39,129 nt of DNA from the IMG/VR virus record IMGVR_UViG_3300031629_000018, positions 1-39,129 of that record; one strand, given 5' to 3'. The notes below the pieces were generated by a model that had not been told where the DNA came from, did no database searches, and saw only the letters and a list, made by a program, of their open reading frames with translations. This document shows positions 5,940-23,122 of this stretch, piece after piece. Position 1 is the first letter of the stretch; every line of letters starts with the position of its first letter. Source of the DNA: a virus. A program made the translations under genes and the position numbers.

Positions 5940-5965
5940 GGGTTCTTCTTTCAGGTTGGGATCAA

Positions 5966-5995
5966 ACCCTACCATGAGAAAAGCGCAGAGGTCAA
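5966..5995 (-). promoter_or_regulatory. Possible promoter of the leftward replication operon
   Basis: On the minus strand TTGACC (5995-5990) is followed after 18 bases by TAGGGT (5971-5966), giving a start near 5960 and a 20-base leader to the HNH gene. The -10 is weak; an alternative -35 TTGTCA lies near 6035. Confidence 0.3.
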
Positions 5996-6059
5996 ATCGG
6001 ATTAGTTTGAAATTAGATTTGCTTCTCGCTTGACAACGCTAGTAGAATTTTTGGATACA

Positions 6060-6146
6060 CCATAGGGAGCGGCAGCGACACCAGGGTAGGGCGAGCAGCA
6101 GCGAGCAGTAAGCCTAGGCCCAGTAGCGGCGGGAGCCGCCCTATGG
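6060..6146. other. Long inverted repeat in the divergent control region
   Basis: CCATAGGG (6060-6067) plus CGGC (6070-6073) pairs with GCCG (6135-6138) plus CCCTATGG (6139-6146), a 12-bp stem with a 2-base bulge around a 61-base loop. The loop contains the palindrome GCCTAGGC. It could be an RNA leader or a protein-binding site between the two divergent operons. Confidence 0.5.
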
Positions 6147-6155
6147 TACAAGGAG

Positions 6156-6202
6156 TCATGCTCGTACTCATGGTATCCAATCTCATGCTCGTACTCATGG
6201 TA
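6156..6202. repeat. Two 20-bp direct repeats upstream of the lysis promoter
   Basis: The sequence TCATGCTCGTACTCATGGTA occurs at 6156-6175 and again at 6183-6202, 27 bases apart. The second copy ends 6 bases before the -35 box, a position typical of activator or repressor operators. An overlapping frame would encode a short hydrophobic peptide but is not convincing as a gene. Confidence 0.7.
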
Positions 6203-6208
6203 GTCCTG

Positions 6209-6237
6209 TTGCCAATGGTGGTGAAGTCTGATAAAAT
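6209..6237 (+). promoter_or_regulatory. Sigma70-type promoter of the lysis cassette
   Basis: TTGCCA (6209-6214), a 17-base spacer and TAAAAT (6232-6237) preceded by TG at 6229-6230 form an extended -10 promoter. Transcription would start near 6244, giving a leader of about 90 bases before the holin. Confidence 0.65.
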
Positions 6238-6335
6238 AGATGCGTGCCCATTTCTGACTGCCATTGGTGCGAGGTGTTCGATCTCGAATATGCTCAGCCA
6301 CTCTGCCCATCCCATGTCCCACACAAAGGAAATTC

Positions 6336-6569
6336 ATGACAGCTCTTCTGCCAGACCTACGCAACATCCGCAACGAGGTCGTTTTCGTTCTCACGCTCGC
6401 AGGGACAGTGATCAGTGAACTGATTGTTATCCTAGGCGACGCAGATTTCTCTTCGACAGCGTCCCTCACTGCCCTGATCCCTCTGCTCGTGGGACTGGTG
6501 GCCCGCACGAAGGTCTACGGGCCTGACGTGGCCGAGTTGTTAGGGGAACCTGCCAGTGAAATTTCGTAA
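6336..6569 (+). CDS. Putative holin, two membrane segments
   Basis: The 77-residue product has two hydrophobic segments (about residues 13-32 and 44-59) separated by a short acidic turn, with charged ends. This matches class II phage holins, which permeabilise the inner membrane to release endolysin. The start at 6336 follows AAAGGAAA by 4 bases. It overlaps the endolysin gene by 14 bases, the usual holin-endolysin arrangement. No specific holin family is recognised. Confidence 0.7.
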   Translation: MTALLPDLRNIRNEVVFVLTLAGTVISELIVILGDADFSSTASLTALIPLLVGLVARTKVYGPDVAELLGEPASEIS

Positions 6570-7158
6570 GGCGACACGGGATGTCCGGCTGGCTCAAAGC
6601 TTTCTTATCAAGATCGGGGTCCGGCTCCAAGCGGACGGGGTCAACGGGTACCTCACACGGCGTGCAGTCCGGATGTTTCAACACTCGTTCAGTCTGGGAA
6701 CCTACGCTGATGCGCCTCTCGTGGTCGATGGCGACCCGGGCTCTTCCACCCTTGTCGCCATGCGGTTGTGTGAGAAAGCCGGGTTCAAGGTGAGCGAGAA
6801 TTTCGGCTACCGGGAGTTCAAGACTTGGGGGATGCAGACACCGACATTGCAGAATCATGTGATCCGGTTGGACCGTGACCTCGTGACGGCATGCCAGAAG
6901 CTGCGTGAAACAGTCGGGCCTGTCGTCATCCTTTCCGCATACCGTGACCCCAGTCACAACCGGCGGATCGGTGGGGCGAGTCGTAGCCAACACCTGCTAG
7001 GTAAGGCGATCGACATGGACCGGGCCAAGATGGGTCGTGTCGATGAGGCTACCGCTCGTGCGGCAGGCTTCAACGGCATAGGCATGCGGTCCAAGGCCGA
7101 CCCGGCAGTCATCCACATGGACGTGCGTGACACGGCCACCCGCTGGTACTACGCATGA
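6556..7158 (+). CDS. Endolysin: peptidoglycan-binding domain plus M15-type peptidase
   Basis: The 200-residue product has an N-terminal peptidoglycan-binding-like helical domain (about 8-75, with LQADGVNGYLTRRAVRMFQ) and a C-terminal M15_3 metallopeptidase. SENFGYREF opens the domain, LSAYRDPSHNRRIGG follows, and zinc ligands H146 and D153 (SQHLLGKAID) and H187 (IHMDVR) are all present. Such enzymes cut D-Ala-containing peptide bonds in the host wall. No export signal is visible, so release depends on the holin. Confidence 0.9.
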   Translation: MKFRKATRDVRLAQSFLIKIGVRLQADGVNGYLTRRAVRMFQHSFSLGTYADAPLVVDGDPGSSTLVAMRLCEKAGFKVSENFGYREFKTWGMQTPTLQNHVIRLDRDLVTACQKLRETVGPVVILSAYRDPSHNRRIGGASRSQHLLGKAIDMDRAKMGRVDEATARAAGFNGIGMRSKADPAVIHMDVRDTATRWYYA

Positions 7159-7168
7159 TGCGTCCGGC

Positions 7169-7552
7169 ATGAGCGACCCGATCGCCCCTCTCCTCCAACA
7201 GATTGGGGCGATCGCAAGTTCTATCGCCATCATCCTCGGATTGTTGGCCCCAGTTCTCATCTGGATGAAACGTCGAGGCAAGAAACGTCTCGTGAACTGG
7301 GCACGGGTAGCGCTAACCCACCGCAACGGTGATGCAGGACTGCATCAGGTGTTGACTGTCGTCGAGAACGACATTGTCGCAGTGAAACTTCACGCCAGTA
7401 TTGACTCGCTCTCGGAACGGTTAGACGTGTCCGAGATGAAGTTGACGGAACGGCAGGACCTGAACGACCTGCGCACTGAACGAATGCAAGATAGCCTTGA
7501 CCAGCTAACTTCCGCCCTGATTCAGAGCGGGATCGAACGGGAGAACCGATAA
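7169..7552 (+). CDS. Membrane-anchored coiled-coil protein, lysis accessory
   Basis: The 127-residue product has a single hydrophobic segment (about 12-33) followed by a basic stop-transfer cluster (KRRGKKR). A heptad-like region at about 75-125 is probably a coiled coil. The start at 7169 is chosen because it opens directly on the membrane segment. It could be a second holin, an antiholin or a spanin-like protein; its place right after the endolysin supports a lysis role. The stop overlaps the next ATG (TAATG). Confidence 0.65.
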   Translation: MSDPIAPLLQQIGAIASSIAIILGLLAPVLIWMKRRGKKRLVNWARVALTHRNGDAGLHQVLTVVENDIVAVKLHASIDSLSERLDVSEMKLTERQDLNDLRTERMQDSLDQLTSALIQSGIERENR

Positions 7553-8328
7553 TGAAAACTTTGTACTTGGACCTTGAGACCGCTCCAAATTTAGGATATT
7601 GCTGGGGGAAGTACGAGCAGAATGTCATGTCGTACGCTGACCCTGGGCGAGAGAAGTATTGCCTCTGTTTCTCGTACAAGTGGGGGCATGAAGACGAGAC
7701 GCATGTTGTGTCCCAGATCGACTTCCCTACGGCATTCAAGAAAGACAAGCAGGATGACAGTCGTGTACTCAAAGCGCTCTGGCAACTTTTAGACGACGCA
7801 GAAATCGTGATAGGGCACAATCTTAGGGCCTTCGATTTGAAGAGTGCCAACATGTTCTTTATTAAACAGAACTGGACTGCTCCCAGCCCGTACCAGACTG
7901 TCGACACCCTGATCCTCGCTCGGTCCAACTTCAAATTCAATTCAAACAGTTTAAAGGACCTTGCCATAACCTTGGGATTGCCGATTCAGAAGGGGAACGC
8001 TGGCGGATTTGCCACATGGCTCGGCTGCATGGACGGGGACAAGGATGCCTGGGCAGACATGATCAAGTACGCAAAGATTGATACGGAACTGCTGCCTCTC
8101 CTGTACGAACGGCTCCGCCCGTTCTGCAAAGGACTCCCGTCTGTCAACTTCATCGACAACGACGGCTGCCCTGTCTGCGGTGAAGGCGAGAACGGTCTCG
8201 TGAAGCGGGGCTTCCGTTACACGAAGGTGAACCGGTTCCAAGTCTGGCAATGCTTGGATTGCATGTGTTACTCGTCGTCTCGCATGGGCGACTTGACCGT
8301 GGACGACAAGCCTGTACGGGTGAGCTGA
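7552..8328 (+). CDS. DEDD-type (RNase H-like) exonuclease with C-terminal zinc ribbon
   Basis: The 258-residue product opens with YLDLET, giving the first acidic pair D7/E9. IGHNLRAFD at 87-95 is the second motif and YAKIDTELLPLL at 173-184 the third (D177), the pattern of 3'-5' exonucleases of the DnaQ/RNase_H_2 group. A four-cysteine zinc ribbon (C206, C209, C234, C237) ends the protein. It is likely a nucleic-acid exonuclease, and could proofread or degrade host DNA. It sits in the lysis block, an unusual place, and converges on the accessory array with a 14-base gap. Confidence 0.8.
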   Translation: MKTLYLDLETAPNLGYCWGKYEQNVMSYADPGREKYCLCFSYKWGHEDETHVVSQIDFPTAFKKDKQDDSRVLKALWQLLDDAEIVIGHNLRAFDLKSANMFFIKQNWTAPSPYQTVDTLILARSNFKFNSNSLKDLAITLGLPIQKGNAGGFATWLGCMDGDKDAWADMIKYAKIDTELLPLLYERLRPFCKGLPSVNFIDNDGCPVCGEGENGLVKRGFRYTKVNRFQVWQCLDCMCYSSSRMGDLTVDDKPVRVS

Positions 8329-8342
8329 ACCGGGGCCGCCAC

Positions 8343-8639
8343 CTATTCGGTGTCGCCTTGGACCCGCCGCTTCAAGTCACGGCCACGGTCATCGACGAGG
8401 ACCAACAGGTCGGCCTTCCGTGCCATGTCCACCTCGGCCTCGTCGCACGGGGCGCAGACCGTCGAAAGGTTGTACGTGGACAGGTACGTGCCGCACCCCC
8501 GTATACACACGTCGTTGTATCGTGCGCCGGTGAGTTTCTGCTCGTCGTCCAGAGGTGAGATGCGATGCGAGGCGGTGTCGGTCACATCCTCAATGAACTT
8601 GTTCAGATAGCTTTCACGGTACCGGTTGTGGTTTGTCAT
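8343..8639 (-). CDS. Small zinc-ribbon protein, paralogue A
   Basis: The 98-residue product has a four-cysteine ribbon (C45, C49, C62, C65) preceded by RISPLDDEQKL. The same arrangement occurs in the 71-residue protein at 8882-9097 (RISSLPDDQKL, then C29, C32, C45, C48), so the two are paralogues. The start follows AAGGAAG. It is the last gene of the leftward accessory array. Function unknown; zinc ribbons of this size often bind nucleic acid or host proteins. Confidence 0.7.
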   Translation of the reverse strand: MTNHNRYRESYLNKFIEDVTDTASHRISPLDDEQKLTGARYNDVCIRGCGTYLSTYNLSTVCAPCDEAEVDMARKADLLVLVDDRGRDLKRRVQGDTE

Positions 8640-8881
8640 GTTGACTTCCTTCTTGTCGGTTTAATGGTGGCAAACCTTCGGAGTCTGCCACCCTGAGCGC
8701 TTGGCCTGACCGTTGCCATCAGGGCTGGGCATTGTTGCCCATACGGTCCGGTTGGTCGCTCATTTGTGCGCTGCACGGGAATCGAACCCGTGTGGTGTGC
8801 CCTCCGCTCAGCGCTGCATGCCTAATGTCCCGTCTAAGGCCCCTAGGAGCCGTTCTAACGGGCTTTAGCCCGATTTGTGGG
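8640..8881 (-). other. Intercistronic region with GGGCT/AGCCC hairpin and tRNA-like minihelix
   Basis: This 242-base spacer between two zinc-ribbon genes holds a short hairpin (CGGGCT-AA-AGCCCG, about 8860-8873) just after the upstream stop and the tRNA-like element at 8768-8814. A 14-codon frame after the element is too short to call. I see no longer gene. Confidence 0.5.
8768..8814 (-). ncRNA. tRNA-like minihelix 1 (T-arm plus acceptor-like stem)
   Basis: On the minus strand a perfect T-arm (ACGGG, loop TTCGATT, CCCGT, plus one extra C-G pair) lies at 8792-8774. It is followed directly by CAGCGC, which pairs with GCGCTG at 8814-8809 to form a 6-bp acceptor-like stem. The D-arm and anticodon arm of a real tRNA are replaced by a 16-base linker. 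Two more elements of this design occur at 11315 and 11559, all followed by GCGCAC. Confidence 0.55.
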
Positions 8882-9097
8882 CTACCGCCACCGTGCTTTC
8901 TCTGCCGCATGAGCGAGGCTGAGTTCGATGCGGTTCTTGCCGGATCTTTCCTCGCAAGGCGAGCACACCATGCCGATCGTGTCCCCGGCCAGATACGCCC
9001 CGCATTCGTCGCACGGAACTTTGCCTTTCCGTAGCTTCTGGTCGTCAGGCAGGGAGGAGATGCGTTTGATGTAGGCAAGTCTAGGGTTGTACGTCAT
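8882..9097 (-). CDS. Small zinc-ribbon protein, paralogue B
   Basis: The 71-residue product has C29-x2-C32 and C45-x2-C48 and clear similarity to the 98-residue protein at 8343-8639 (shared RISxLxDxQKL, then CxxCGxYL and VCxPCxE). The start at 9097 follows GAGGAA and its ATG overlaps the upstream stop (ATGA). The C-terminal 20 residues are basic and helical. A duplication within the array followed by divergence is likely. Confidence 0.7.
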   Translation of the reverse strand: MTYNPRLAYIKRISSLPDDQKLRKGKVPCDECGAYLAGDTIGMVCSPCEERSGKNRIELSLAHAAEKARWR

Positions 9098-9303
9098 GAT
9101 TCCTCTTTCGGGAACGGGTGGTGGGCGGGGCAAGCATGGAACCAGTCAACGCTTTTCCTGCCGGAGACGGAGGCCCAGCCCGCCGCCCTCACCTGAACCT
9201 CGTCAGAGAAATGGTACTGCCCCAGTTCCGTGGCGTTCAAACCGTGGACGACATCGCACCTTCCCACGTCACAGTGGAGCGTTTCAGGTCGTCGGATAGT
9301 CAT
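9094..9303 (-). CDS. Small protein of unknown function, cysteine-containing
   Basis: The 69-residue product has C11 and C16 near the N-terminus and CPAHH near the C-terminus, so a zinc site is possible. ATGA overlaps at both ends tie it to its neighbours and support the start at 9303. No family recognised. Confidence 0.6.
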   Translation of the reverse strand: MTIRRPETLHCDVGRCDVVHGLNATELGQYHFSDEVQVRAAGWASVSGRKSVDWFHACPAHHPFPKEES

Positions 9304-9848
9304 TGCTCTTCCTTCGGTAGCGAGTTCGCCATCCCCACCCCACGAATGAGGGAGCCGATAGCAGTGAATGAGAGAGTGGAGCCACGGAAAGTGAGCTGGA
9401 TGATAGCCGGTTTACCTTTGCCCGTCTTAATCTTGCCTAAAGTGGCGGCGTGAGGGGCGAAGAACCCGAAATGGTTGGTTTCTTCGGGCGGGGTGAGGTT
9501 GTAGCAGAACTGGACGTAGCCTCCCCCTTCCGGTATCGGTGCAACCTGGTAGAGGGAAACCGCCCCTTCCCATTTGACCGCAACACTACCTTCTCGTTTC
9601 GTTACCTGCGAATCGGGGGAGGCGGCGAGTTGTTTGCAGAACCCTGCCCCGTCAAGGATCAGGTACGGCTCGGAAGAGAACAGGAGCGGGTTGTAGTCAG
9701 ACATCACTGCCATCATCTTCCCATCGCACGCCATGAGTTCGTTTTCCCCATCGCTCCACGAGCGGACCTGGATTTGGGACCAGCGAGGGTCCGCCCCCTT
9801 CTTAGTGTCAAGGAAATGGGACAGGTTCTTTATTTCATGCTTATTCAT
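9300..9848 (-). CDS. Protein of unknown function, possibly sliding-clamp-like
   Basis: The product has 182 residues with mixed beta-rich sequence. MACDGKMMAVM (about 39-49) and the C-terminal SLIRGVGMANSL loosely recall the DNA-polymerase beta clamp, where an ATDG-type turn and a C-terminal strand recur. This resemblance is weak and the length is half that of a full clamp. The start follows AGGAAG; ATGA overlaps join it to both neighbours. It is the largest gene of the accessory array. Confidence 0.6.
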   Translation of the reverse strand: MNKHEIKNLSHFLDTKKGADPRWSQIQVRSWSDGENELMACDGKMMAVMSDYNPLLFSSEPYLILDGAGFCKQLAASPDSQVTKREGSVAVKWEGAVSLYQVAPIPEGGGYVQFCYNLTPPEETNHFGFFAPHAATLGKIKTGKGKPAIIQLTFRGSTLSFTAIGSLIRGVGMANSLPKEEQ

Positions 9849-10018
9849 TGCTTCCTTCTTTCTTGTTGGTTGAGTTTGTCTGCCAACGCTTCAGCGGCGG
9901 CGTAAGTCTTACGTAACGACCCGGGTACCACGGTCGAGGGGGGAGGGAACTTCCCGACCGCCCAGGGGTAGGTGGGCCGGTCGTAGTCGGCGTGGGGGAT
10001 GGGGGCGAAGACTATCAT
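9845..10018 (-). CDS. Small protein of unknown function
   Basis: The 57-residue product has a proline-rich middle and a C-terminal amphipathic helix (KTYAAAEALADKLNQQE). The start at 10018 overlaps the upstream stop as TGATG; the stop overlaps the next ATG. The tight coupling is the main support. Confidence 0.55.
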   Translation of the reverse strand: MIVFAPIPHADYDRPTYPWAVGKFPPPSTVVPGSLRKTYAAAEALADKLNQQERRKQ

Positions 10019-10362
10019 CACCGCTCCCACATCCGCCTGTCGTTGATTAGCGGCCAAATCCACTCGTCCCCCTTCACATTGTCAGCCCACGCAGGGCGGG
10101 AGGCATGCCGGAGTCCCGTGGGATCTGGATGCAAGCTCCGAGGGGTCGTGTGGAACTCCCCGAGACCCAAAGCGTCCGTCCAGTCGGACGCTACCTGAAG
10201 CAGGAGGTGAGTGGACACCCCCCTCCCCCATGTCACCCAGCACGGTGCAGTAGGGGCGAGAGGGTTGTCTGCCACGTACTGGGCGTAGTTCGGCCCGTTG
10301 AGGTACGTGACAGTCCCCCTGATCCACTCGTCGAGTTCGTCACTCACTTCACGCAAGCTCAT
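10018..10362 (-). CDS. Protein of unknown function
   Basis: The 114-residue product is tryptophan-rich (eight Trp), soluble and of mixed charge. Its ATG at 10362 overlaps the upstream stop (ATGA) and its stop overlaps the next start (TGATG). No recognised domain. Confidence 0.6.
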   Translation of the reverse strand: MSLREVSDELDEWIRGTVTYLNGPNYAQYVADNPLAPTAPCWVTWGRGVSTHLLLQVASDWTDALGLGEFHTTPRSLHPDPTGLRHASRPAWADNVKGDEWIWPLINDRRMWER

Positions 10363-10604
10363 CGCCCGTCACCGACCCAAATCTCGGCAGAAGGAGAAGA
10401 CTGGTTCATGCCCAGTTCGTTCTCGATGGCACGGACGGCCGATGCGAGGGCGGCGACCAAAGCCGCAGCCCCGACCTGGGTGAAGATAGTGATGTCTGTT
10501 CCTTCGAATTCGAGTTGAAGGTGCGAGCCGAACCCCCCTTCCCCCACCTTCACACGGATAGGGCCGGTATGGACGTGGTAGCAAAGTGAACTGGTGTTAC
10601 TCAT
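10359..10604 (-). CDS. Small protein of unknown function
   Basis: The 81-residue product has beta-rich residues 8-45 and then an alanine-rich helix (AAALVAALASAVRAIENEL). The start at 10604 follows AGGAAA. The amphipathic helix could mediate oligomerisation. No family recognised. Confidence 0.6.
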   Translation of the reverse strand: MSNTSSLCYHVHTGPIRVKVGEGGFGSHLQLEFEGTDITIFTQVGAAALVAALASAVRAIENELGMNQSSPSAEIWVGDGR

Positions 10605-10631
10605 GATTGTTTCCTTCTCTCTGATTGTGGA

Positions 10632-10808
10632 TTAATTAACGATAGCACAGTTTGGGACATAGCCGACAAATTCGACATCATCACAGCTCACGTCTCCCAC
10701 GAACCGCCAAATGGCGGCGCAATTCGTGCAAATGAACGTGTGGGAGTCGGGTTCAGGGATGGTTGGGCGGTCACAATCTTCACAGATGACGCCGATAGTG
10801 ATACTCAT
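10632..10808 (-). CDS. 58-residue zinc-ribbon micro-protein
   Basis: The product has C9-x2-C12 and C27-x2-C30, a complete minimal zinc ribbon. The start at 10808 follows AGGAGAGG and overlaps the stop of the 39-codon gene upstream (ATGA); the stop is TAA. The CxxC pairs and overlap chain make this a credible gene in spite of its size. Confidence 0.7.
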   Translation of the reverse strand: MSITIGVICEDCDRPTIPEPDSHTFICTNCAAIWRFVGDVSCDDVEFVGYVPNCAIVN

Positions 10809-10924
10809 TGCCCTCTCCTTGTCGTATAATCCTCGCCGGGCGGCGATAGATATTGCTCGATTAGGAATAAGAGTTCTTCAATATGAGTGAGCTGGTTCTC
10901 TACAGCCCGTTCCACCGTCCCCAT
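10805..10924 (-). CDS. 39-residue micro-protein in an overlapping chain
   Basis: The product has an amphipathic N-terminal helix (residues 3-26, leucine/glutamate-rich) and a basic tail. The start overlaps the upstream stop as TAATG and the stop overlaps the next start as ATGA. Support is positional; function unknown. Confidence 0.5.
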   Translation of the reverse strand: MGTVERAVENQLTHIEELLFLIEQYLSPPGEDYTTRRGQ

Positions 10925-11025
10925 TAGGCCAGTGTCCCGTCTAGCCAGCGCAGTAGCTCTAAGGTGAGCCACAGGCCACCTATGGCGATGACGAAGCCCA
11001 CTGCCCCTTCTGCTGCTTCCCTCAT
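10924..11025 (-). CDS. 33-residue single-pass membrane micro-protein
   Basis: The product begins MREAAEG and then has one hydrophobic segment of about 20 residues (AVGFVIAIGGLWLTLELL) and a short charged end. Overlaps are ATGA with the upstream gene and TAATG with the downstream gene. A membrane micro-protein of identical length occurs in the other leftward operon at 37471-37572. Confidence 0.55.
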   Translation of the reverse strand: MREAAEGAVGFVIAIGGLWLTLELLRWLDGTLA

Positions 11026-11279
11026 TGTTCGCTCCGTTCCCATGCCGTCCAGTGGATACTCTCGGCTTGAGCCGAGGTCATACTGACACCGGTATCGGCC
11101 AGATAGTCCGTGATCCAGAGTGAAGGGGAATCCGCCCGGCCACTGTTTATTGCTTCCACCAGTTCCCTAGTCACCATTGCGATGGTCTTAGGGGTCGCTG
11201 GCTCACCACCCGTAAGCGCATGACGGCGGTCCGATTCGTAGGCCGCTTCCATCATTTCAATATCTGCATCATTGATCAT
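11022..11279 (-). CDS. Small protein of unknown function
   Basis: The 85-residue product is acidic and helical. Its start at 11279 is preceded by a purine-rich leader (GAGAGAGAAGAGAGAG) and, 36 bases upstream, by tRNA-like element 2. It opens the chain of four overlapping genes that ends at 10632. Confidence 0.6.
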   Translation of the reverse strand: MINDADIEMMEAAYESDRRHALTGGEPATPKTIAMVTRELVEAINSGRADSPSLWITDYLADTGVSMTSAQAESIHWTAWERSEQ

Positions 11280-11314
11280 TGCTCTCTCTTCTCTCTCTAG
11301 TTGTAGTTGTTAGT

Positions 11315-11354
11315 GCGCTGGCGAGACTCGAACCCGCCCGTATGCCATTAGCGC
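11315..11354 (-). ncRNA. tRNA-like minihelix 2
   Basis: On the minus strand GGCGGG-TTCGAGT-CTCGCC (11338-11320) forms a 6-bp T-arm with a 7-base consensus loop and one G-U pair. AGCGC follows directly and pairs with GCGCT at 11354-11350. The linker that replaces the D- and anticodon arms is 11 bases. It lies between the stop of a 55-codon gene and the leader of the next gene. Confidence 0.55.
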
Positions 11355-11361
11355 CTGTCTG

Positions 11362-11529
11362 TCAATCCTTGAGCCGCAGAACCGCCCACCCCTCTATATC
11401 TGTTTCGCCGTCGCTCACCACGTCCCCCACCCCCCATCCCCGGTACAGGTACGCTTCCGCTCGTTCTACTTCCCGTTCCAGGTCCGCTGATCGCACCAGA
11501 ATTTCGATGATGGCGTTGTGTGTGGGCAT
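11362..11529 (-). CDS. 55-residue protein of unknown function
   Basis: The product has an amphipathic helix (LVRSADLEREVERAEAYLY) followed by a beta-like end (GWAVLRLKD). The start at 11529 follows AAAGGAA by 8 bases. The gene is flanked on both sides by tRNA-like elements: its stop at 11364-11362 is 8 bases from element 2 and its leader begins where element 3 ends. Confidence 0.6.
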   Translation of the reverse strand: MPTHNAIIEILVRSADLEREVERAEAYLYRGWGVGDVVSDGETDIEGWAVLRLKD

Positions 11530-11558
11530 GGTTGTGTTCCTTTGGTTGTGTGGTTAGT

Positions 11559-11598
11559 GCGCTCTCAGGAGTCGAACCTGAGCGTGGACCGTCGGCGC
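11559..11598 (-). ncRNA. tRNA-like minihelix 3
   Basis: On the minus strand CTCAGG-TTCGACT-CCTGAG (11582-11564) is a perfect 6-bp T-arm. AGCGCAC follows, and GCGC at 11598-11595 can pair with its GCGC. The 12-base linker holds no anticodon arm. The 3' flank (GCGCACTAAC) is the same as at element 2. Confidence 0.5.
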
Positions 11599-11612: not shown

Positions 11613-11849
11613 CTAGTAGTTGCCTTCTATGTGCATTTCGGAGTGGTACCCGTCGCTCTTGACTGTGAACGCTATCCATTCTAAGTCTGTACCGTTCCAG
11701 GCTGGCACTGAGTCCAGTATTGCGGCCTTGGTGACTCTGACAGTTGTCTCTGTACCCATGACGGTTACGTAGATGTGGCCGTCGAATGATCGGACCGCTG
11801 AGCGCAGGCTCTTGGTTGTGTGGGTGGAGTGGGTTGTGGTGTTGCTCAT
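11613..11849 (-). CDS. Small protein of unknown function
   Basis: The 78-residue product has a Thr/Ser/His-rich N-terminus followed by an alternating, beta-rich sequence. The ATG at 11849 overlaps the upstream stop (ATGA) and has GGAG 5 bases before it. Function unknown. Confidence 0.6.
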   Translation of the reverse strand: MSNTTTHSTHTTKSLRSAVRSFDGHIYVTVMGTETTVRVTKAAILDSVPAWNGTDLEWIAFTVKSDGYHSEMHIEGNY

Positions 11850-12004
11850 GAGAACTCCAACCCCAGCTCCGTGGCACATCGGGTACATGTCGGTATCGGA
11901 TCAAGGATCGGGTGAGCGACGACACCGTCGGCGGCTTCATCGCACAGTGCGAACCACTCGCACACTGCCCCAGAGTTAGAATTCGTCATTTCGTGTTTCT
12001 TCAT
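11846..12004 (-). CDS. 52-residue zinc-binding micro-protein
   Basis: The product has C15 and C21, then an HPI segment at 31-33, then C40-x2-C43, a layout common in tiny actinophage zinc proteins. The start at 12004 follows GGAAAGAG and shares its whole leader (GGAAAGAGTACGCA) with the gene at 13345-13626. Confidence 0.65.
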   Translation of the reverse strand: MKKHEMTNSNSGAVCEWFALCDEAADGVVAHPILDPIPTCTRCATELGLEFS

Positions 12005-14898: not shown

Positions 14899-15357
14899 AT
14901 GAATTTCGAAATGCTTCCTAATGATTCTGAGCCTGCGGCTTCTTCTATCACCGATTTTCAGCGGATGCTGGTCGAGTGGGATTGTTTGCCTCGCGAGTTG
15001 CGGGAGGAGCGTCAGAAGACGCTGAACGGGTTCTCTAGGGCTCACGGGTTCACGCCTGAGCGGGCTATGAGGGAGATGGAGAAGGACTCGTACAAGCTTG
15101 CTCGCCGCCAGTTCTCGGTCGAGGTGGGGGAGTTGAACCATAAGGTCCGGGCGATCCTGGATGTGGCTTACGAGCAGGCGTTGGCTGGCAATAAGGACGC
15201 ACGGCGTGACTGGTTGGGGCATTATGCTGCTGAGGTTAAGCCTGTGGTGGCTTCTTCGCCTGTGACGGCTGATCCTCTCCCTGAGACCCCTTCCTCGCCT
15301 GAGGAGATGAGTGACGAGCAGCTCGCACACCAGTTGGCTGAGTGGAGTAACGAATGA
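14899..15357 (+). CDS. Helical protein, candidate small terminase subunit
   Basis: The 152-residue product is helical. Residues 18-110 could hold a DNA-binding N-terminal part and an oligomerisation helix, and the end is an acidic, proline-rich tail. The size, charge and place at the head of the structural operon fit a small terminase subunit, but the large subunit lies 4 kb downstream and no diagnostic motif is seen. The start at 14899 lacks a strong ribosome site. Confidence 0.5.
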   Translation: MNFEMLPNDSEPAASSITDFQRMLVEWDCLPRELREERQKTLNGFSRAHGFTPERAMREMEKDSYKLARRQFSVEVGELNHKVRAILDVAYEQALAGNKDARRDWLGHYAAEVKPVVASSPVTADPLPETPSSPEEMSDEQLAHQLAEWSNE

Positions 15358-17183
15358 GTGACCTTAAAGGCACGTACGAGTATAATGGTTCTGACGTTTT
15401 CACGGGCGACACGATCAGTTGGGTGTTGAATCTTCGTAACGAGTCTTCTACTCTCACCCATACTGTGTTGGTGGAGTTGTTGGAACCGGCGGTCTTGTAT
15501 GGGGAGGTGTTCACTACTAGCGCTTTCACTTATTCTGGGTCTGCGGGGGCGAATGCTTCACGGCACGATCTTACGCCTGGCGATTCGTTGTCTGTGTCGT
15601 TGTCTGTGGTCGCTACTGATGTGGACGAGTTGGCGGTCACGTCTATTGCCCGCATTTCTGAGGCGCAGTCTGTTCTTCAGTTGAGGGCGTCCCCTTCGGC
15701 TTCTGTCACTCCTGATGACGAATTTTTTCATATTTCTCCTGATGGTCCGGTGTTGATCAATCATCATCATCAGGATCGGATGGTTACGACAGATTTCCCT
15801 GCACGGGTGAAGGCGTGGCAGCAGGGGACTGGGGATGATTGGTCTCGTGCCCAGATGGACGATCAGATCCTTTCGGGCATTTCTTTCCCCAGTTATCTGC
15901 GTGCGTTGGCTATCAGCGGTATCATGGGCGAAACCTTCACGACAGCCGAAAAGTCGTCCCTTGCCTCCATCCCTGCTTCTCTGGTCGACCTGCAAGCAGA
16001 GGTTGATGCCACTGAGATCGTAGCTAACGCTGCCGCTACAGCAACGGCTTTGGCCGCTGAGATCAGTACTACGGGTGGGGAGATCACTGCTCTTGACGGT
16101 CGTGTGACTGCGACTGAGACTGTAGCGAATGCTGCCACTACGACGGTTTACAACCTGGGAGGCGACGTTGCTGCCAACTGGGCTCGGTTAAACGGCATTG
16201 ACACCGTGCAGGCGACACAGAACACGGATATTGGCACAAACACTGCGAAGCTCGCCGGGATCGAGGCGGGAGCCGATGTCACTGATTCGGTAAATGTCGA
16301 GGCTGCTGTGGCTGGGGCTGGGACTAACAGCTTGGCTATCGGCCCGTCGTCTTCTGCTGGCGGTGGTAAGTCCTCAGCGGTCGGTCATGCGTCTTCTGCT
16401 GGCGGCGAGCAGTCCTCGGCGTTCGGTTATTCGTCTTCTGCTAGCGGCCTGAAGTCCTCAGCGTTCGGGATCGGGGCGTCTGCTACTAGCTCTTCTGCGT
16501 CGGCGTACGGGCGTAGTGCGTCTGCTGCCGGTGAGTCGGCCACGGCGGTCGGTTATGCGACTTCTGCTGACGGGGATTACAGCGTAAGTGTTGGTCGGCA
16601 TGCTTCTGCTTCTGGTGTGGAGGCTATTGCTGTGGGACGCACTTCTGGCGCTTCGGGTTCGCAGTCTGTGTCGATAGGGCACGATAGTGACGCTACAGCG
16701 GCTGGTGCCGTCGCTGTGGGGTACCAGTCGCAGGCTACTGGTTCGCTCTCTTTCGCTGCGGGGCAACAGGCGACTGCCTCAGCGTCTGGTGCCGTAGCGG
16801 TGGGCTATTTATCGCTGGCGGACGGCGGCCAGGGCGTAGCGGTTGGCCAATACGCTGATTCCGGCGGAAGTCAGAGCGTCGCTATCGGGCGCGATAGCGA
16901 TTCGGCTGGCGTGCAGTCGGCAGCGGTGGGCTACAACTCGTCGGCTGCCGCTACCTATTCGGTTTCGCTGGGCGCTGTAACTACCGCCACCGTGTCTGGT
17001 GCCACAGCACTCGGGGCGTTGGCGGATGCTACCGCACAAAATGCGACGGCGTTGGGTTACGACATTACGGCAAACATAATCAACACGGTTTCAATGAACA
17101 ATCTGGAAGTGCAGGGTGCCGCCATCACATGGGGTGCTCTGACGCTATCTGTTGACGGCTCCGGCTTCGTGAAAGCAACATGA
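15354..17183 (+). CDS. Tail fibre or spike with YadA-head-type repeats
   Basis: The 609-residue product has three parts. Residues 1-120 form a beta domain resembling DUF11-type repeats (GDTISWVLNLRNES). Residues 205-310 are Ala/Thr-rich and probably a trimeric coiled coil. Residues 320-590 carry about 18 copies of a 14-16-residue repeat of the form S-x-A-x-G/A-x-x-S-x-A-x-G, the trimeric beta-roll of YadA/Hia adhesin heads (Hep_Hag). Such proteins bind surfaces, so this is the likely receptor-binding fibre. Its start overlaps the previous stop (ATGA). Confidence 0.75.
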   Translation: MSDLKGTYEYNGSDVFTGDTISWVLNLRNESSTLTHTVLVELLEPAVLYGEVFTTSAFTYSGSAGANASRHDLTPGDSLSVSLSVVATDVDELAVTSIARISEAQSVLQLRASPSASVTPDDEFFHISPDGPVLINHHHQDRMVTTDFPARVKAWQQGTGDDWSRAQMDDQILSGISFPSYLRALAISGIMGETFTTAEKSSLASIPASLVDLQAEVDATEIVANAAATATALAAEISTTGGEITALDGRVTATETVANAATTTVYNLGGDVAANWARLNGIDTVQATQNTDIGTNTAKLAGIEAGADVTDSVNVEAAVAGAGTNSLAIGPSSSAGGGKSSAVGHASSAGGEQSSAFGYSSSASGLKSSAFGIGASATSSSASAYGRSASAAGESATAVGYATSADGDYSVSVGRHASASGVEAIAVGRTSGASGSQSVSIGHDSDATAAGAVAVGYQSQATGSLSFAAGQQATASASGAVAVGYLSLADGGQGVAVGQYADSGGSQSVAIGRDSDSAGVQSAAVGYNSSAAATYSVSLGAVTTATVSGATALGALADATAQNATALGYDITANIINTVSMNNLEVQGAAITWGALTLSVDGSGFVKAT

Positions 17184-18426: not shown

Positions 18427-19170
18427 ATGCCCCTCCAGCCGCAGACTCACCAAAACAGGCAGGTTTTACTTAACAGGCCGACGAATGAGATCCTCGGCAT
18501 TGATAGGGGCAACGTCATCTCCGGTGGGACAAACAACTCTATCATCGGTGGGGTAGGGTCGACGATAACTATCCACCCGTCGATAGGGCTTTACCCCGAC
18601 AGTTCTTCCATAGTTGCAGCCTCGTATAGCACTATCTACGGGTCAAGTAATTCGACTGTTGTCGGAGGGTACAACAATCATGTTTGGGCTCCTGCGGCCA
18701 GCAACGGGTCCCACTCTGTGATCTTGGGCGGTAACAACAACGTCATCAGTGCGACGGATGTGGGGTTCAACTCGATCGTCGGGGGGCAGGGTAACACTGT
18801 CACGGGCTTGACGGCATGGTCGGCTATCGTCGGCGGGTACGCTAACAGGATTGATGTTGAATCTTCTCAGACGGTCATTGCCGGTGGGAAGAACCATATA
18901 GCTCAGACGGCTTCGGGTGCGAGTTTCTTCGGCGGGGGTTGGACTAACACGATGACCAACGCTGAACGGTGCGCCATCATAGCGGGAAAAGACAACATCA
19001 TCCTGAACATGGACGACGCAGTCATGATCGGTTGTACCGGGAGGACTGCCACGGCAGCCCAGACAACCCATGTCGACAAGCTCGCCATAATGAACATCCC
19101 GACTTCGGCCGCAGGGCTGGCCGCAGGCACTGTGTGGCGTAGCGGAACGGCACTCAACATAGTCTTATGA
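18427..19170 (+). CDS. Second beta-roll fibre or spike protein
   Basis: The 247-residue product is built from repeats containing [ST]-x-I-x-G-G-x-x-N-x-[IV] (IIGGVGSTI, VVGGYNNHV, ILGGNNNVI, IVGGQGNTV, IVGGYANRI, IAGGKNHI), a head-like beta-roll or solenoid related to but distinct from the repeats at 15354. The C-terminal 55 residues look like a trimerisation cap. It is probably a second adhesin or part of the same fibre. The stop overlaps the terminase start (ATGA). Confidence 0.7.
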   Translation: MPLQPQTHQNRQVLLNRPTNEILGIDRGNVISGGTNNSIIGGVGSTITIHPSIGLYPDSSSIVAASYSTIYGSSNSTVVGGYNNHVWAPAASNGSHSVILGGNNNVISATDVGFNSIVGGQGNTVTGLTAWSAIVGGYANRIDVESSQTVIAGGKNHIAQTASGASFFGGGWTNTMTNAERCAIIAGKDNIILNMDDAVMIGCTGRTATAAQTTHVDKLAIMNIPTSAAGLAAGTVWRSGTALNIVL

Positions 19171-20780
19171 CCACACGGGAAGGAGTCGAGCAGGAACTGG
19201 AATGGCGTAGATGCAAGGCCAACCCGATCTATTTTATGGAACGGTACTGGCATATCTCCATCCCTGGGGGGTCTCCGTTGTTCGAACTTCGCTCCCCTCA
19301 GTTGGAAGCGTTGGGGGTGTGGGAGGGGGGAGATAACACTATTTCGTTGAAAGCCCGCCAGATCGGCTGGTCTACGTTGGCTGCCGCTTACGCCTTCTGG
19401 AAAGCATTTTTTCATTCGGATGAGACTGTCGTCATGCTTTCCCGTACCGAAAATTTTGCTAAGAAGCTCCTCCAGATGAGCAAGTATGGTTTCAATCGTC
19501 TCCCTGAGTGGATGCAAGACCGTGGGCCTGACTGTGAGAAACAGAACCTTCTGGAACTGAACTTCGTGAACGGCTCGTCGATCGAGTCGATGGCTTCCAG
19601 AGAGAACGCTGCCCGTGGTATCACGGCTTCTCTCATCATCGCAGACGAGTGGGCGTTCTTCAACGACCCTGCCGAAGCGTGGACAGCCATCTACCCTGCC
19701 ACTGAGGTGGGCGGGCAGATCATCGGGATCTCTACCGCTAACGGTTTCGGCAACTGGTTCCACAGGTTCTATGAGTCGGCTAAGGCGGGGACTAACAACT
19801 TTGTTGCCATGTTTTTTGCTTGGGATTCTGTCCCTGGCAGGGACGGCGAGTGGTATAAGAAACGCACCAAGGATATGGAACCTTGGCAGTTGTCGCAAGA
19901 ATATCCGACGACAGATGAGGAAGCTTTCATCGCTTCCGGTAACCCTGTCTACGACACTGACATGCTGAAGCAACGCATCGAAGTGTTGAAACCTGAGTTC
20001 GAGGGTCGACTGGCGATAGATCAGGAAGGCGGGTTCCAACTGATCCAATCGGATGCGCCGAACCTGCGGACGTGGGAACGGCCACAGGCGGACATGAGCT
20101 ACGCTATCGGTGCCGACATTGCGGCAGGTGGCCCGCAGGGCGACTACAGCACGGCGTGCGTGATCAAGGTGAACACTGGCAGGGTTGTGGCGATGTTTAA
20201 GGACCGGGTTGTCCCTGAAGATTTCGCTGAGCTGTTGGACAGTCTCGGCAGGTTCTACAACAAGGCTTTGCTCGCCCCTGAACGCAACACTCATGGCCTT
20301 GTGGTGGTACGCCGCCTCATGTACGAGTTGAACTATCCGAACCTGTATCTCCATACGAGAGACAACATCAACCAGTCGACTACACGCAACGCAGGCTGGC
20401 ATACGAACGGGACTTCTAAACCTGTGATGGTTGACGAACTCGGTGCGGCTCTACGCCGAGGCGAAGTGATCTTGCATGATGACGAAACGCTGATCGAGTT
20501 GATGGCGTACTCTCGGAAGATCACGAGCAACGGGCACGAAACGTATGAGGGGAAACCTCACGACGATTTGGTGATCGCTTTGGCTATCGCCAACATGATG
20601 CGGCCACATGTCCATGTGGTGAAGAAGAAGATGGACGAGGAGGGGGACGGGTTGACTATGGAGTTCTTCGAAACTTTAGCGATCCGTGCCAGAGCCCATA
20701 AGAAGAACAGTTCATCGAAGCCTTATACCGCTGGCTATAAGCCGCCCAAAGTGAACCCGGGGTTCATCGTCCATGCCTAA
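19167..20780 (+). CDS. terL: Terminase large subunit
   Basis: The 537-residue product has an ATPase domain with the phage Walker A variant KARQIGWST (62-70) and Walker B LIIADE (156-161). The RNase H-like nuclease domain has likely metal ligands D317 (IGADIAAG), E372 (APERN) and D467 (HDDLVIALA). It cuts and packages phage DNA into the prohead through the portal encoded downstream. No inversion or break is visible. Confidence 0.93.
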   Translation: MTTREGVEQELEWRRCKANPIYFMERYWHISIPGGSPLFELRSPQLEALGVWEGGDNTISLKARQIGWSTLAAAYAFWKAFFHSDETVVMLSRTENFAKKLLQMSKYGFNRLPEWMQDRGPDCEKQNLLELNFVNGSSIESMASRENAARGITASLIIADEWAFFNDPAEAWTAIYPATEVGGQIIGISTANGFGNWFHRFYESAKAGTNNFVAMFFAWDSVPGRDGEWYKKRTKDMEPWQLSQEYPTTDEEAFIASGNPVYDTDMLKQRIEVLKPEFEGRLAIDQEGGFQLIQSDAPNLRTWERPQADMSYAIGADIAAGGPQGDYSTACVIKVNTGRVVAMFKDRVVPEDFAELLDSLGRFYNKALLAPERNTHGLVVVRRLMYELNYPNLYLHTRDNINQSTTRNAGWHTNGTSKPVMVDELGAALRRGEVILHDDETLIELMAYSRKITSNGHETYEGKPHDDLVIALAIANMMRPHVHVVKKKMDEEGDGLTMEFFETLAIRARAHKKNSSSKPYTAGYKPPKVNPGFIVHA

Positions 20781-21036
20781 CCTTATTTGCGCCGAATGCG
20801 GTGTCGTCGAGAGCCAGGATGGTCGTGACGTCTGTTTCGGCTGCAAGATCGGTTCTCTAACTTTCGGGTCCGTGAAAATGGAGTCCTCTACAGAACACGA
20901 GATCGTTTCCGCCAACAAGGGGCGAGACATTGTGCGTGCTGAACCTATGGCTGATCGGCGTGAAAGCGCTCAGGAGCCAGTATTGACCATTTCGGAAGAC
21001 ACTAAGAGAATGATTCACGCCACTCATGGACGTTAA
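20773..21036 (+). CDS. Small zinc-ribbon protein between terminase and portal
   Basis: The 87-residue product has C6-x2-C9 and C21-x2-C24 at the N-terminus and a polar, charged tail. It overlaps the terminase end by 8 bases and the portal start by 11 bases. It may assist packaging; the family is not recognised. Confidence 0.65.
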   Translation: MPNLICAECGVVESQDGRDVCFGCKIGSLTFGSVKMESSTEHEIVSANKGRDIVRAEPMADRRESAQEPVLTISEDTKRMIHATHGR

Positions 21037-23122
21037 CACTCCCACCCCATCGGTCTCGTCAGGCAAAGTGCCTATCGGGAGGCAGCAGAAGCTCGCAGAT
21101 TATCGGGCCGAGATCGGCGCAGCTAAAGAAGTCATGGAGGAGGGTGACGGCTATCACGAGAATTGGCGACGTTTCGTCGGCATGTATGAACGGAACCTCA
21201 ACACTTCGAACGATCCGGCTGTGGACAGTATCGATGTCCCTATCGGTTTCGCTAACGTCAACATCCTTCGTTCGGCGTTGACGGTGAACCATCCGAAGTT
21301 CACGGTGAACCCTCGCAACAAGGCATCCTACATGCCTGCCACGTTGTCTGAGGAGATCATCAATTACGAATGGTACCACAACGACCATCAGGACGAAGTC
21401 CGTATGGCTGTTGACGATTTCCTTATCACCGGTAACGGTTGGATGAAGGTCGGTTACCATCTGGAAACGAGTGGGCGTCGCAGCGAAGTGACGGCGTTGT
21501 CTCAGCAATCTGAGGGCGGCATAGATTACGGTGCGTTCGCTAAAGGTTTCAGTGACGACTTCGACGGGGTTGTCGACCGGGCACAGTTGACTCTGAACTC
21601 TCGACCGGCTATGGGCGGTTCCCTCCCACCCCGGTCCGAGATGGCACGGCAGTTGCGTGAAGTCGGGGCGGTGATCCTGAAAGATGAGTGTGTGGTTGAA
21701 CGGGTCAGCGTGTTCGACATGCTGGTAGACCCTACAGCTACGTCGATGCGGAACGCCCAGTGGGTGGCTCAGCGTGTGCCTGTCAGGTCCGATGTCGCTT
21801 CCGATAACAAGGGGTGGCCTGCACGGGTCCGTGGGCAGCTCTCTCCGGGTCAGAAGTCTTTGGCTGAAGATCCTGACACAGGGATCGACGATGACGGTTC
21901 ACCTAATTCGAGCATCATTAACGGCCGCCCCGGTGGCGAGAAGATCGAATGGGTTATCGTTTGGGAATTCTATGATCTGCAAGATGGCACCATGTGCATC
22001 TTCGATGACGATCTGGCTGACGATTTTTTGGTGAAACCGCAGCCGATGCCTTTCGCTTTCGGTCACCCGTTCGTCCACATCGGCAACTATTCGGTGCCTG
22101 ACAAGTTCTACCACATCGGGGAGCTGGAACGCATCGAAACTCTCCAGATGGAAATCAACAAAACCCATTCGGCGTTGGTGAATGACCGTAAAGGTTTCCA
22201 ACGGAAATGGATGGTCGCTGAAGATTTCTTGAACGATGAAGGCCCGAACAGTCTGGCATCGGTCCTCCGCTCGGAGGAAGACAACCTTATCGCTTCGATC
22301 CCTTCGCTGAAGCAGGGGCAGCGCATGGACGACATCATCGCCCGTGTCCCTTCCCCTCAGCTCGACCCCGCCTTGTACAGTGTGGGGTCTGTGTTGCAGA
22401 ACCTCATGAACGAGGTCAGTGGCATCTCGGAGTATCAGCGTGGTTCCGGCTCAGGCGGCGGCACAGCCACTGAAGCTGCGATCATCAACGATGGCACTCT
22501 TGCTCGGATGAAAGAGAAGCAGGGCAAGGTTGAGAAGTTTATGCGTGACACGGCACGCCGTGTTGTCCAGTTGAAGCAGCAGTACCAGAAATCTGAGAAG
22601 GCTTTGCGGATCTCTCTGGGCGACAACCCTCAGGCTGTGCAGAAGTTGAACGATGCCGGTATCGACTTGGAAGCGGCCACTGGTGTGGCTAACCCTTCGG
22701 AGTTGTTCACGACCTACACGGCTGAGGATATCGGAGGCGAGTACGATCTGGTCGTTGAGGCGGGTTCGTCTACAGCGTTCAACGAGTCGCAGCGTCGACG
22801 CTCTATCCAGGAGATGCTGGCGACTATCGGCCCGTTCCTCCAGTTAGGCAAGATTGATGTGGATGCGTTGTTGACGTACGTACTCCAGTTCGGTTTCGGC
22901 ATACCTAACGCTATGGATTTCTTGAAGAAGGAAGAACCTGCTCAGCAGCAGCCTGGTGGGACGCCTTATGGTGGCCCCGGTGGCGGCCCTCCTCCTCAGC
23001 AGGGGCCTCCTGCGGGTGGGGCTGGGGTGGCTTCGGTCGCTGGCGGCATTCTCCCTCCTTCGGGCGGGGTGCCGGAATCGGCTTCCGCTCCGCCTCAGAA
23101 CTTACCGACCGTTAGCTATTGA
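21026..23122 (+). CDS. Portal protein
   Basis: The 698-residue product has the length and layout of podovirus portals: a helical N-terminal wing (about 20-150, with ENWRRFVGMYERN), a central stem region, the long helical GTATEAAIINDG segment typical of portals, and a Gln/Pro/Gly-rich disordered C-terminus (about 640-698). Its place after the terminase and before the scaffold supports the call. It forms the dodecameric DNA entry ring. Confidence 0.85.
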   Translation: MDVNTPTPSVSSGKVPIGRQQKLADYRAEIGAAKEVMEEGDGYHENWRRFVGMYERNLNTSNDPAVDSIDVPIGFANVNILRSALTVNHPKFTVNPRNKASYMPATLSEEIINYEWYHNDHQDEVRMAVDDFLITGNGWMKVGYHLETSGRRSEVTALSQQSEGGIDYGAFAKGFSDDFDGVVDRAQLTLNSRPAMGGSLPPRSEMARQLREVGAVILKDECVVERVSVFDMLVDPTATSMRNAQWVAQRVPVRSDVASDNKGWPARVRGQLSPGQKSLAEDPDTGIDDDGSPNSSIINGRPGGEKIEWVIVWEFYDLQDGTMCIFDDDLADDFLVKPQPMPFAFGHPFVHIGNYSVPDKFYHIGELERIETLQMEINKTHSALVNDRKGFQRKWMVAEDFLNDEGPNSLASVLRSEEDNLIASIPSLKQGQRMDDIIARVPSPQLDPALYSVGSVLQNLMNEVSGISEYQRGSGSGGGTATEAAIINDGTLARMKEKQGKVEKFMRDTARRVVQLKQQYQKSEKALRISLGDNPQAVQKLNDAGIDLEAATGVANPSELFTTYTAEDIGGEYDLVVEAGSSTAFNESQRRRSIQEMLATIGPFLQLGKIDVDALLTYVLQFGFGIPNAMDFLKKEEPAQQQPGGTPYGGPGGGPPPQQGPPAGGAGVASVAGGILPPSGGVPESASAPPQNLPTVSY

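What the first reader, a model, noticed from the sequence alone, without database searches (positions are those of the whole stretch)
8768..11598. Three tRNA-like T-arm/acceptor minihelices between accessory genes
Elements at 8768-8814, 11315-11354 and 11559-11598 each have a consensus-like T-arm (a 6-bp stem and a TTCGAnT loop) followed by AGCGCAC and a short upstream GCGC-type partner. They lack any D- or anticodon arm. The T-stems differ in sequence between copies but keep pairing, while the loop and 3' flank are conserved. They lie in leaders or spacers of a leftward operon. They could recruit RNase P, RNase Z or CCA-adding enzyme to process polycistronic RNA, stabilise ends, or mimic tRNA in another way. 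I know of no described phage element of this form.
Basis: partly seen in the sequence, partly recalled or inferred. Interest (0 to 1): 0.8.

Follow-up and report, generated by a model that had tools for sequence, protein, structure and literature searches.

The report
Mini-tRNA punctuation marks in phage operons
Between the genes of this phage, and of many unrelated phages, lie roughly 42-letter RNA elements that copy just the elbow and tail of a transfer RNA, probably so that the host's tRNA-trimming enzymes cut or protect the phage's long messages gene by gene; no described family of this kind was found.

Summary
The three elements are real. They lie on the minus strand at 8766-8814, 11313-11354 and 11557-11598. 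They belong to a large phage RNA family that Rfam does not hold. Architecture: acceptor stem (5-8 bp), a stemless D-loop-like linker (A-Y-G-G), then a T-stem and canonical T-loop; no D-stem and no anticodon arm. A search blind to the linker found 142 distinct copies in 3 Mb against 1 in reversed sequence; 140 of the 142 carry GG near the same linker position. Both stems covary strongly (99% of cells paired, 0/500 shuffles). In a set chosen by motif alone, 67 different acceptor sequences occur. The tRNA C74 position is C in 121/140, yet CCA occurs once. Copies sit just after a stop codon and about 20-50 nt before the next start, on the gene strand. In cultured Mycobacterium and Gordonia phages consecutive gene gaps carry them (about ten per genome). 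Bacterial chromosomes almost lack them. Best explanation: intercistronic mimics of the RNase P minimal substrate that recruit host RNase P, perhaps RNase Z, to cut or protect polycistronic phage mRNA. Structure and placement are shown; cleavage is inferred and untested.

The parts
11557..11598 (-). Minihelix element W3: acceptor 11598-11594/11563-11559, D-loop-like linker GACGGTCCACG 11593-11583, T-stem 11582-11577/11569-11564, T-loop TTCGACT 11576-11570, A73 C74 at 11558-11557
   Evidence: R1 60.5 bits (E 3.4e-11 in the record; W3 was in the training set of R1); 14 nt after the stop of ORF 11613-11888, 27 nt before the next ATG
11313..11354 (-). Minihelix element W2: acceptor 11354-11350/11319-11315, linker AATGGCATACG 11349-11339, T-stem 11338-11333/11325-11320, T-loop TTCGAGT 11332-11326, A73 C74 at 11314-11313
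   Evidence: R1 56.1 bits (E 3.1e-10; in the training set); 7 nt after the TGA of ORF 11362-11529 and 33 nt before the ATG of ORF 11022-11279
8766..8814 (-). Minihelix element W1, divergent: 6-bp acceptor 8814-8809/8773-8768, 16-nt linker with AGCGG, 6-bp T-stem 8792-8787/8779-8774, T-loop TTCGATT 8786-8780, A73 C74 at 8767-8766
   Evidence: Found by R1 although not in its training set (30.1 bits, E 1.4e-4 in the record); best folding z-score of the three
11613..11888 (-). ORF (91 aa, unknown function) upstream of W3
   Evidence: the ORF listing; no PHROG or Pfam match
11362..11529 (-). Small ORF (55 aa, ATG with AAAGGA upstream) lying between W3 and W2
   Evidence: read; shorter than the 60-aa listing limit
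11022..11279 (-). ORF (85 aa) downstream of W2; weak PHROG hit (pyrophosphatase, E 0.001)
8343..8639 (-). ORF (98 aa, unknown function) downstream of W1, the leftward gene nearest the exonuclease gene

Best explanation
The elements are cis-acting RNA punctuation marks. In the polycistronic phage transcript each such spacer folds into the top half of a tRNA: acceptor stem stacked on a T-arm, with a stemless D-loop (A-Y-G18-G19) docked on the T-loop to form the elbow. This is the shape and length that host RNase P measures. RNase P, and possibly RNase Z on the 3' side (C74 kept, CCA avoided), would cut at the minihelix. That would separate neighbouring messages, leave the upstream one ending just after its stop codon and give the downstream one a structured, decay-resistant 5' end about 20-50 nt before its start. 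Shown: the fold, the D-loop-like GG, the stack of 11-13 bp, C74 without CCA, strand and position between genes, spread across unrelated phages. Inferred: the docking itself, that the host tRNA-maturation machinery is the partner, that cutting occurs, and that the benefit is gene-by-gene mRNA stability or expression.
For: Fold: 11 pairs, 99.1% of cells paired, 47 compensatory cells, 0/500 shuffles; a second set mostly from named phages 99.3%, 46 cells, 0/500. Among 95 motif hits chosen without regard to acceptor pairing, 74 have an acceptor of 5 bp or more against 9.6 (max 16) after shuffling, with 67 different acceptors. Linker-blind search: 142 hits against 1 in reversed sequence; GG at linker offset 3-4 in nearly all; C74 121/140, CCA 1/140, C75 8/140; stack 11-13 bp in 139/140. 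Placement: 108/137 begin within -12..19 nt of a same-strand stop (opposite strand 16, random 13) and 87/137 lie 20-49 nt before a start (opposite 15, random 29). In annotated genomes most copies lie 6-13 nt after the stop and 33-51 nt before the next start, and orientation follows gene direction on both strands of Morgana. From papers: E. coli RNase P RNA cuts synthetic acceptor-stem/T-stem/T-loop hairpins efficiently, and the elbow-to-cut distance corresponds to the conserved 12 bp (PMC11143913); any RNA presenting the TSL-acceptor stack should be cut, T-loop or similar needed, D-loop dispensable (PMC4919913).
Against: No transcript or end data. RNase P is usually helped by a 3' RCCA, and here C75 is avoided. 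In 32 of 127 cases the longest upstream ORF's stop overlaps the element (12 by one base, TA|G), so a cut at the canonical site would break the stop codon there; part of these may be false ORF calls. A stack of 11 bp in about a third of copies is one short of tRNA. The D-loop GG is conserved more strictly than the published RNase P requirements demand, so another elbow-reading partner is possible.
Confidence: 0.58

Rival explanations
1. Uncut structural insulators: the stable elbow fold between stop codon and ribosome-binding site blocks exonucleases or RNase E/J scanning, or separates terminating from initiating ribosomes, without being cleaved by tRNA enzymes.
For: Tight spacing to both stop and start; stop codons overlapping G1 in some copies sit better with an uncut element; many mycobacteriophage spacers add a second stem-loop.
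Against: A generic hairpin would do; it would not need the T-loop TTCGANT, the D-loop GG, the 11-13 bp stack and C74, all conserved.
Confidence: 0.2
2. Decoys: the minihelices soak up a host factor that reads the tRNA elbow (RNase P, RNase Z, TruB, TrmA, EF-Tu, or a tRNA-targeting defence nuclease), slowing host tRNA maturation or immunity.
For: Elbow mimicry with CCA avoided; up to about a dozen copies per genome.
Against: Placement at nearly fixed distances between genes is not needed for a decoy; copies are spread singly between genes.
Confidence: 0.1
3. Uncut translation leaders: the tRNA mimic binds the ribosome (E site or L1 stalk) or a factor and sets initiation of the downstream gene.
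For: About 20-50 nt upstream of starts; the L1 stalk reads tRNA elbows (PMC4919913).
Against: The distance to the start varies more than the distance to the preceding stop in annotated phages; phages with and without Shine-Dalgarno-like leaders have them.
Confidence: 0.07
4. Decayed tRNA genes or attP tRNA fragments left by integration.
For: T-arm fragments beside tyrosine integrases do occur (Gordonia EMsquaredA, Pollux, RavenCo17); tRNA remnants are common after integration (PMC9897764).
Against: Decay does not preserve pairing in both stems across 67 different acceptors nor a fixed position after stop codons; the attP fragments score only 17 bits with R2.
Confidence: 0.02

Closest known systems
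Plant mitochondrial t-elements (tRNA-like structures at mRNA ends, processed by RNase P and RNase Z)
   Same: tRNA-like folds next to coding genes that could mark mRNA ends
   Different: Organellar and few in number; here phage-borne, many copies per genome, reduced to acceptor, D-loop and T-arm; cutting not shown
Synthetic RNase P model substrates (acceptor-stem/T-stem/T-loop hairpins such as AT1)
   Same: Acceptor stem stacked directly on T-stem and T-loop
   Different: Natural, with a D-loop-like linker, and mostly without the 3' RCCA used in the laboratory
tRNA-like domain of tmRNA
   Same: Acceptor + stemless D-loop + T-arm, no anticodon arm; one element (L233) scores 25 bits against Rfam tmRNA, below its gathering score
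   Different: No mRNA-like domain, no conserved G3-U70, no CCA, many copies between genes
T7 early-region RNase III sites (own knowledge)
   Same: Would be the same logic: processing sites between phage genes yielding separate stable mRNAs
   Different: Different enzyme and fold; RNase III sites are long hairpins, not tRNA mimics
Plant-virus 3' tRNA-like structures
   Same: Viral RNA mimicking the acceptor/T half of tRNA and acting on host tRNA enzymes
   Different: Pseudoknotted, at genome 3' ends, with CCA; RNA viruses of plants

Membership tests
canonical tRNA gene | anticodon arm and D-stem | tested here: not met
   no room between acceptor and T-arm (11 or 16 nt linker in the window); ARAGORN 0 genes
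canonical tRNA gene | T-loop TTCRANT with paired T-stem, acceptor stem 7 bp | tested here: inconclusive
   T-loop and T-stem met; acceptor 5-8 bp with total stack 11-13 against 12 in tRNA
tmRNA | tag-encoding mRNA-like domain and alanine G3-U70 | tested here: not met
   42-49 nt in all; acceptors vary freely with no conserved G-U at the third pair; no tmRNA by ARAGORN or Rfam gathering
any Rfam 15 family | covariance-model match at the gathering score | tested here: not met
   window none; L044 and seven further loci only matches below gathering
RNase P substrate (acceptor/T-arm type) | T-loop elbow and about 12-bp stack to the cut site | tested here: met
   stack 11-13 bp in 139/140, T-loop required by the search and paired with GG at the D-loop position
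RNase P substrate (acceptor/T-arm type) | 3' R73-C74-C75-A76 | tested here: inconclusive
   purine 73 in 100/140, C74 in 121/140, but C75 only 8/140 and CCA 1/140
RNase P substrate (acceptor/T-arm type) | actual cleavage at N-1/N+1 | not testable with these tools
   needs RNA ends or biochemistry
plant mitochondrial t-element | tRNA-like structure adjacent to a protein-coding mRNA | tested here: met
   stop/start spacing statistics
plant mitochondrial t-element | mapped mRNA ends at the structure | not testable with these tools
   no RNA data held
attP tRNA fragment | single copy next to an integrase, 3' part of a tRNA only | tested here: not met
   multiple copies with both acceptor strands, between small accessory genes

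The most novel reading that the evidence does not exclude
Phages of several bacterial phyla share a general system in which polycistronic transcripts are punctuated gene by gene with minimal tRNA mimics (acceptor + D-loop + T-arm) that host tRNA-maturation enzymes cut into separate messages: a prokaryotic counterpart of tRNA punctuation in mitochondria, carried by a previously undescribed RNA family.
Probability: 0.45. Interest if true: 0.93.

Novelty: new variant of a known kind. Interest (0 to 1): 0.85.

Why it matters
It adds a widespread, strongly covarying RNA family to phage genomes, including cultured M. smegmatis, Gordonia and C. glutamicum phages in which these spacers carry no annotation. 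It offers a concrete mechanism for how phages could split long operons with host enzymes, gives RNase P or RNase Z a testable mRNA role in infection, and supplies natural minimal tRNA-elbow RNAs of about 42 nt.

Tried and rejected
Hidden full tRNAs (ARAGORN; linker too short). Known RNA family (Rfam at gathering; permissive on other loci: only sub-gathering hits, e.g. mascRNA 19.6 bits, tmRNA 25 bits). Chance: a reversed-sequence control gives 1 hit against 142. DNA-level site: orientation follows the genes and stems covary, so RNA. attP or decayed tRNA fragments: the Gordonia hits beside integrases look like that, and score low. Lactobacillus J-1, Bacillus Ray17, Microbacterium Gack and Bacillus vB_BcoS-136 hits are partial or lie in tRNA arrays and are not counted. 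Near relatives of the window in named phages: none by megablast or blastn. Core bacterial genes: R2 finds a match in 3 of 157 Mycobacterium and Microbacterium genomes, two of them the seeds. A first refined pattern was off by one base and found only 5 contigs; corrected. One query was malformed and one protein reference wrong. Alignment A7 has one misaligned row (L282), which only lowers its score.
Full report
WHAT IS THERE. The three elements exist and lie on the minus strand: W1 8766-8814, W2 11313-11354, W3 11557-11598. Each folds as an acceptor stem stacked on a T-arm with loop TTCGANT. Single-sequence folding energy is not by itself significant for W2 and W3. No tRNA and no Rfam family is found. 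The window is a 39,129-base virus record with a terminase large subunit (19167-20780), portal (21026-23122), DnaB-like helicase (1456-2415) and DNA-polymerase exonuclease subunit (7552-8328). The elements sit among small leftward accessory ORFs. W3 lies 14 nt after the stop of ORF 11613-11888 and 27 nt before a 55-aa ORF at 11362-11529. W2 lies 7 nt after that ORF's stop and 33 nt before ORF 11022-11279. W1 is looser: 16-nt linker, 126 nt before ORF 8343-8639.

IT IS A FAMILY. Scanning IMG/VR for GGTTCGANTCN{3,8}AGCGCAC returned mostly true tRNAs, but also a set of short elements like these, five of them in one contig, L044. A covariance model from 21 of them (R1; W2 and W3 included, W1 not) found about 75 copies in about 45 contigs, some of them copies of the same phage, and recovered W1.

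THE STRUCTURE IS UNDER SELECTION. On A2, 99.1% of cells pair, 9 of 11 pairs change on both sides, there are 47 compensatory cells, none of 500 shuffles is as high, and sliding the partner by one column drops pairing to about 40%. On a second set, mostly from named phages, the figures are 99.3%, 46 cells, 0/500. A test that does not use acceptor pairing to choose sequences: of 95 nonredundant motif hits, 74 have an acceptor of 5 bp or more against 9.6 expected (max 16) when 3' flanks are exchanged; 67 different acceptors occur. The hits without an acceptor look like true tRNAs as far as inspected.

THE LINKER IS D-LOOP-LIKE, NOT A MERE SPACER. A search that demanded only T-loop, T-stem, acceptor and linker length found 142 distinct copies in 3 Mb and one in reversed sequence. 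140 of 142 have GG at linker offset 2-6, almost always 3-4, preceded by A-Y and followed by T. This is the order of a tRNA D-loop around G18-G19. Caution: many loci were fetched with patterns that contain this linker; but 43 of the 140 lie in loci fetched without a linker-only pattern (12 of the L335-and-later loci came through BLAST queries that include it), and 33 more copies carry linkers that do not fit the fetching patterns. In the tRNA register, position 74 is C in 121/140, position 75 avoids C (8/140), and full CCA appears once (for copies with an 11-bp stack the register was shifted by one base). Stack length is 11, 12 or 13 bp in 139/140. In a set defined only by linker and T-loop, with no shift of register, C is at position 14 after the T-loop in 51/86 and CCA in 0/86.

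PLACEMENT. Of 137 nonredundant elements in 97 contigs, 108 start within -12 to +19 nt of a same-strand stop codon (opposite strand 16; random 13) and 87 end 20-49 nt before a same-strand start (opposite 15; random 29) (ORF-based, refined). GenBank annotation gives the same picture independently: in Mycobacterium phages Fowlmouth and Indlulamithi and Gordonia phage Morgana most copies begin 6-13 nt after the annotated stop and end 33-51 nt before the next annotated start. In Morgana the elements switch strand with the genes. Many consecutive gaps each carry one. Matches per genome with R2 at E <= 0.05, weak partial matches included: Indlulamithi 12, Morgana 11, Fowlmouth 10, Wildcat relative MaryV 4 (2 convincing), PSonyx 3 (2 convincing), a saliva Caudovirus 1, Streptococcus prophages Javan227 and Javan235 1 each. 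The elements are not annotated in those records.

WHO HAS THEM. Phages of Actinobacteria, Streptococcus and, judging by AT-rich leaders without Shine-Dalgarno, probably Bacteroidota (inference). Bacterial genomes rarely do: 3 of 157 Mycobacterium and Microbacterium genomes, two of them the seeds. In the 257-Gb genome collection the strict pattern gave 21 stretches, of which only three score as clear members; L175 has RecT-, exonuclease- and integrase-like neighbours as judged by eye, i.e. probably a prophage.

HOW IT PROBABLY WORKS. The conserved features are those that elbow-reading, length-measuring tRNA enzymes need. E. coli RNase P RNA cuts synthetic acceptor-stem/T-stem/T-loop hairpins efficiently, and the T-loop-to-cut distance corresponds to 12 bp (PMC11143913). 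A review states that any RNA presenting this stack will be recognised and cut, with the T-loop or a similar loop needed and the D-loop dispensable (PMC4919913). RNase P also processes mRNAs, pre-tmRNA and phage RNAs (PMC12710915). I therefore favour processing of polycistronic mRNA, with C74 without CCA leaving room for RNase Z. This step is inference. Against it: no RNA data; CCA avoided; stop codons that share their last base with G1 in some copies, where a canonical cut would destroy the stop. Uncut insulator, decoy and translation leader remain as rivals.

NOVELTY. Rfam 15 has no such family, and nine full-text searches of the open PMC library found no description. Subscription papers and most preprints are not covered, so 'not described' is a limited claim. 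Related known things are plant mitochondrial t-elements, the tRNA-like domain of tmRNA, plant-virus tRNA-like structures, and laboratory RNase P substrates. None is a phage-wide intercistronic minihelix.

Noticed in passing
L180 (MaryV, MN585992) gaps at about 5944-9765: Wildcat-type phages carry larger, two-armed tRNA-like structures with TTCAAAC/TTCGAAC T-loops in many gaps of the right arm (e.g. GCCCATGG ... GGTAC TTCAAAC GTACC CATGGGC AC), perhaps a related punctuation type.
   Followed up: partly
L354, L355, L356 gaps: In Fowlmouth, Indlulamithi and Morgana a second short stem-loop often follows the minihelix before the ribosome-binding site.
   Followed up: no
L351:1823-1864 (PSonyx 50822-50863): One element lies directly upstream of an RtcB-like RNA ligase gene.
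   Followed up: no
window 8719-8763 (minus strand): A possible 14-codon ORF (ATGAGCGACCAACCGGACCGTATGGGCAACAATGCCCAGCCCTGA) starts 2 nt after W1, in the long leader of ORF 8343-8639.
   Followed up: no
L355: Indlulamithi record coordinates near 35320 and 40298: Some copies carry an extra hairpin between D-loop and T-arm, intermediate between the minihelix and a fuller tRNA shape.
   Followed up: no
window 15354-17183: 609-aa protein with YadA-head repeats (Pfam E 6e-23) upstream of the terminase gene.
   Followed up: no
L233:401-441 and L332:813-853: Element resembling the tRNA-like domain of tmRNA (Rfam tmRNA 25 bits for L233), a possible origin for one lineage.
   Followed up: no
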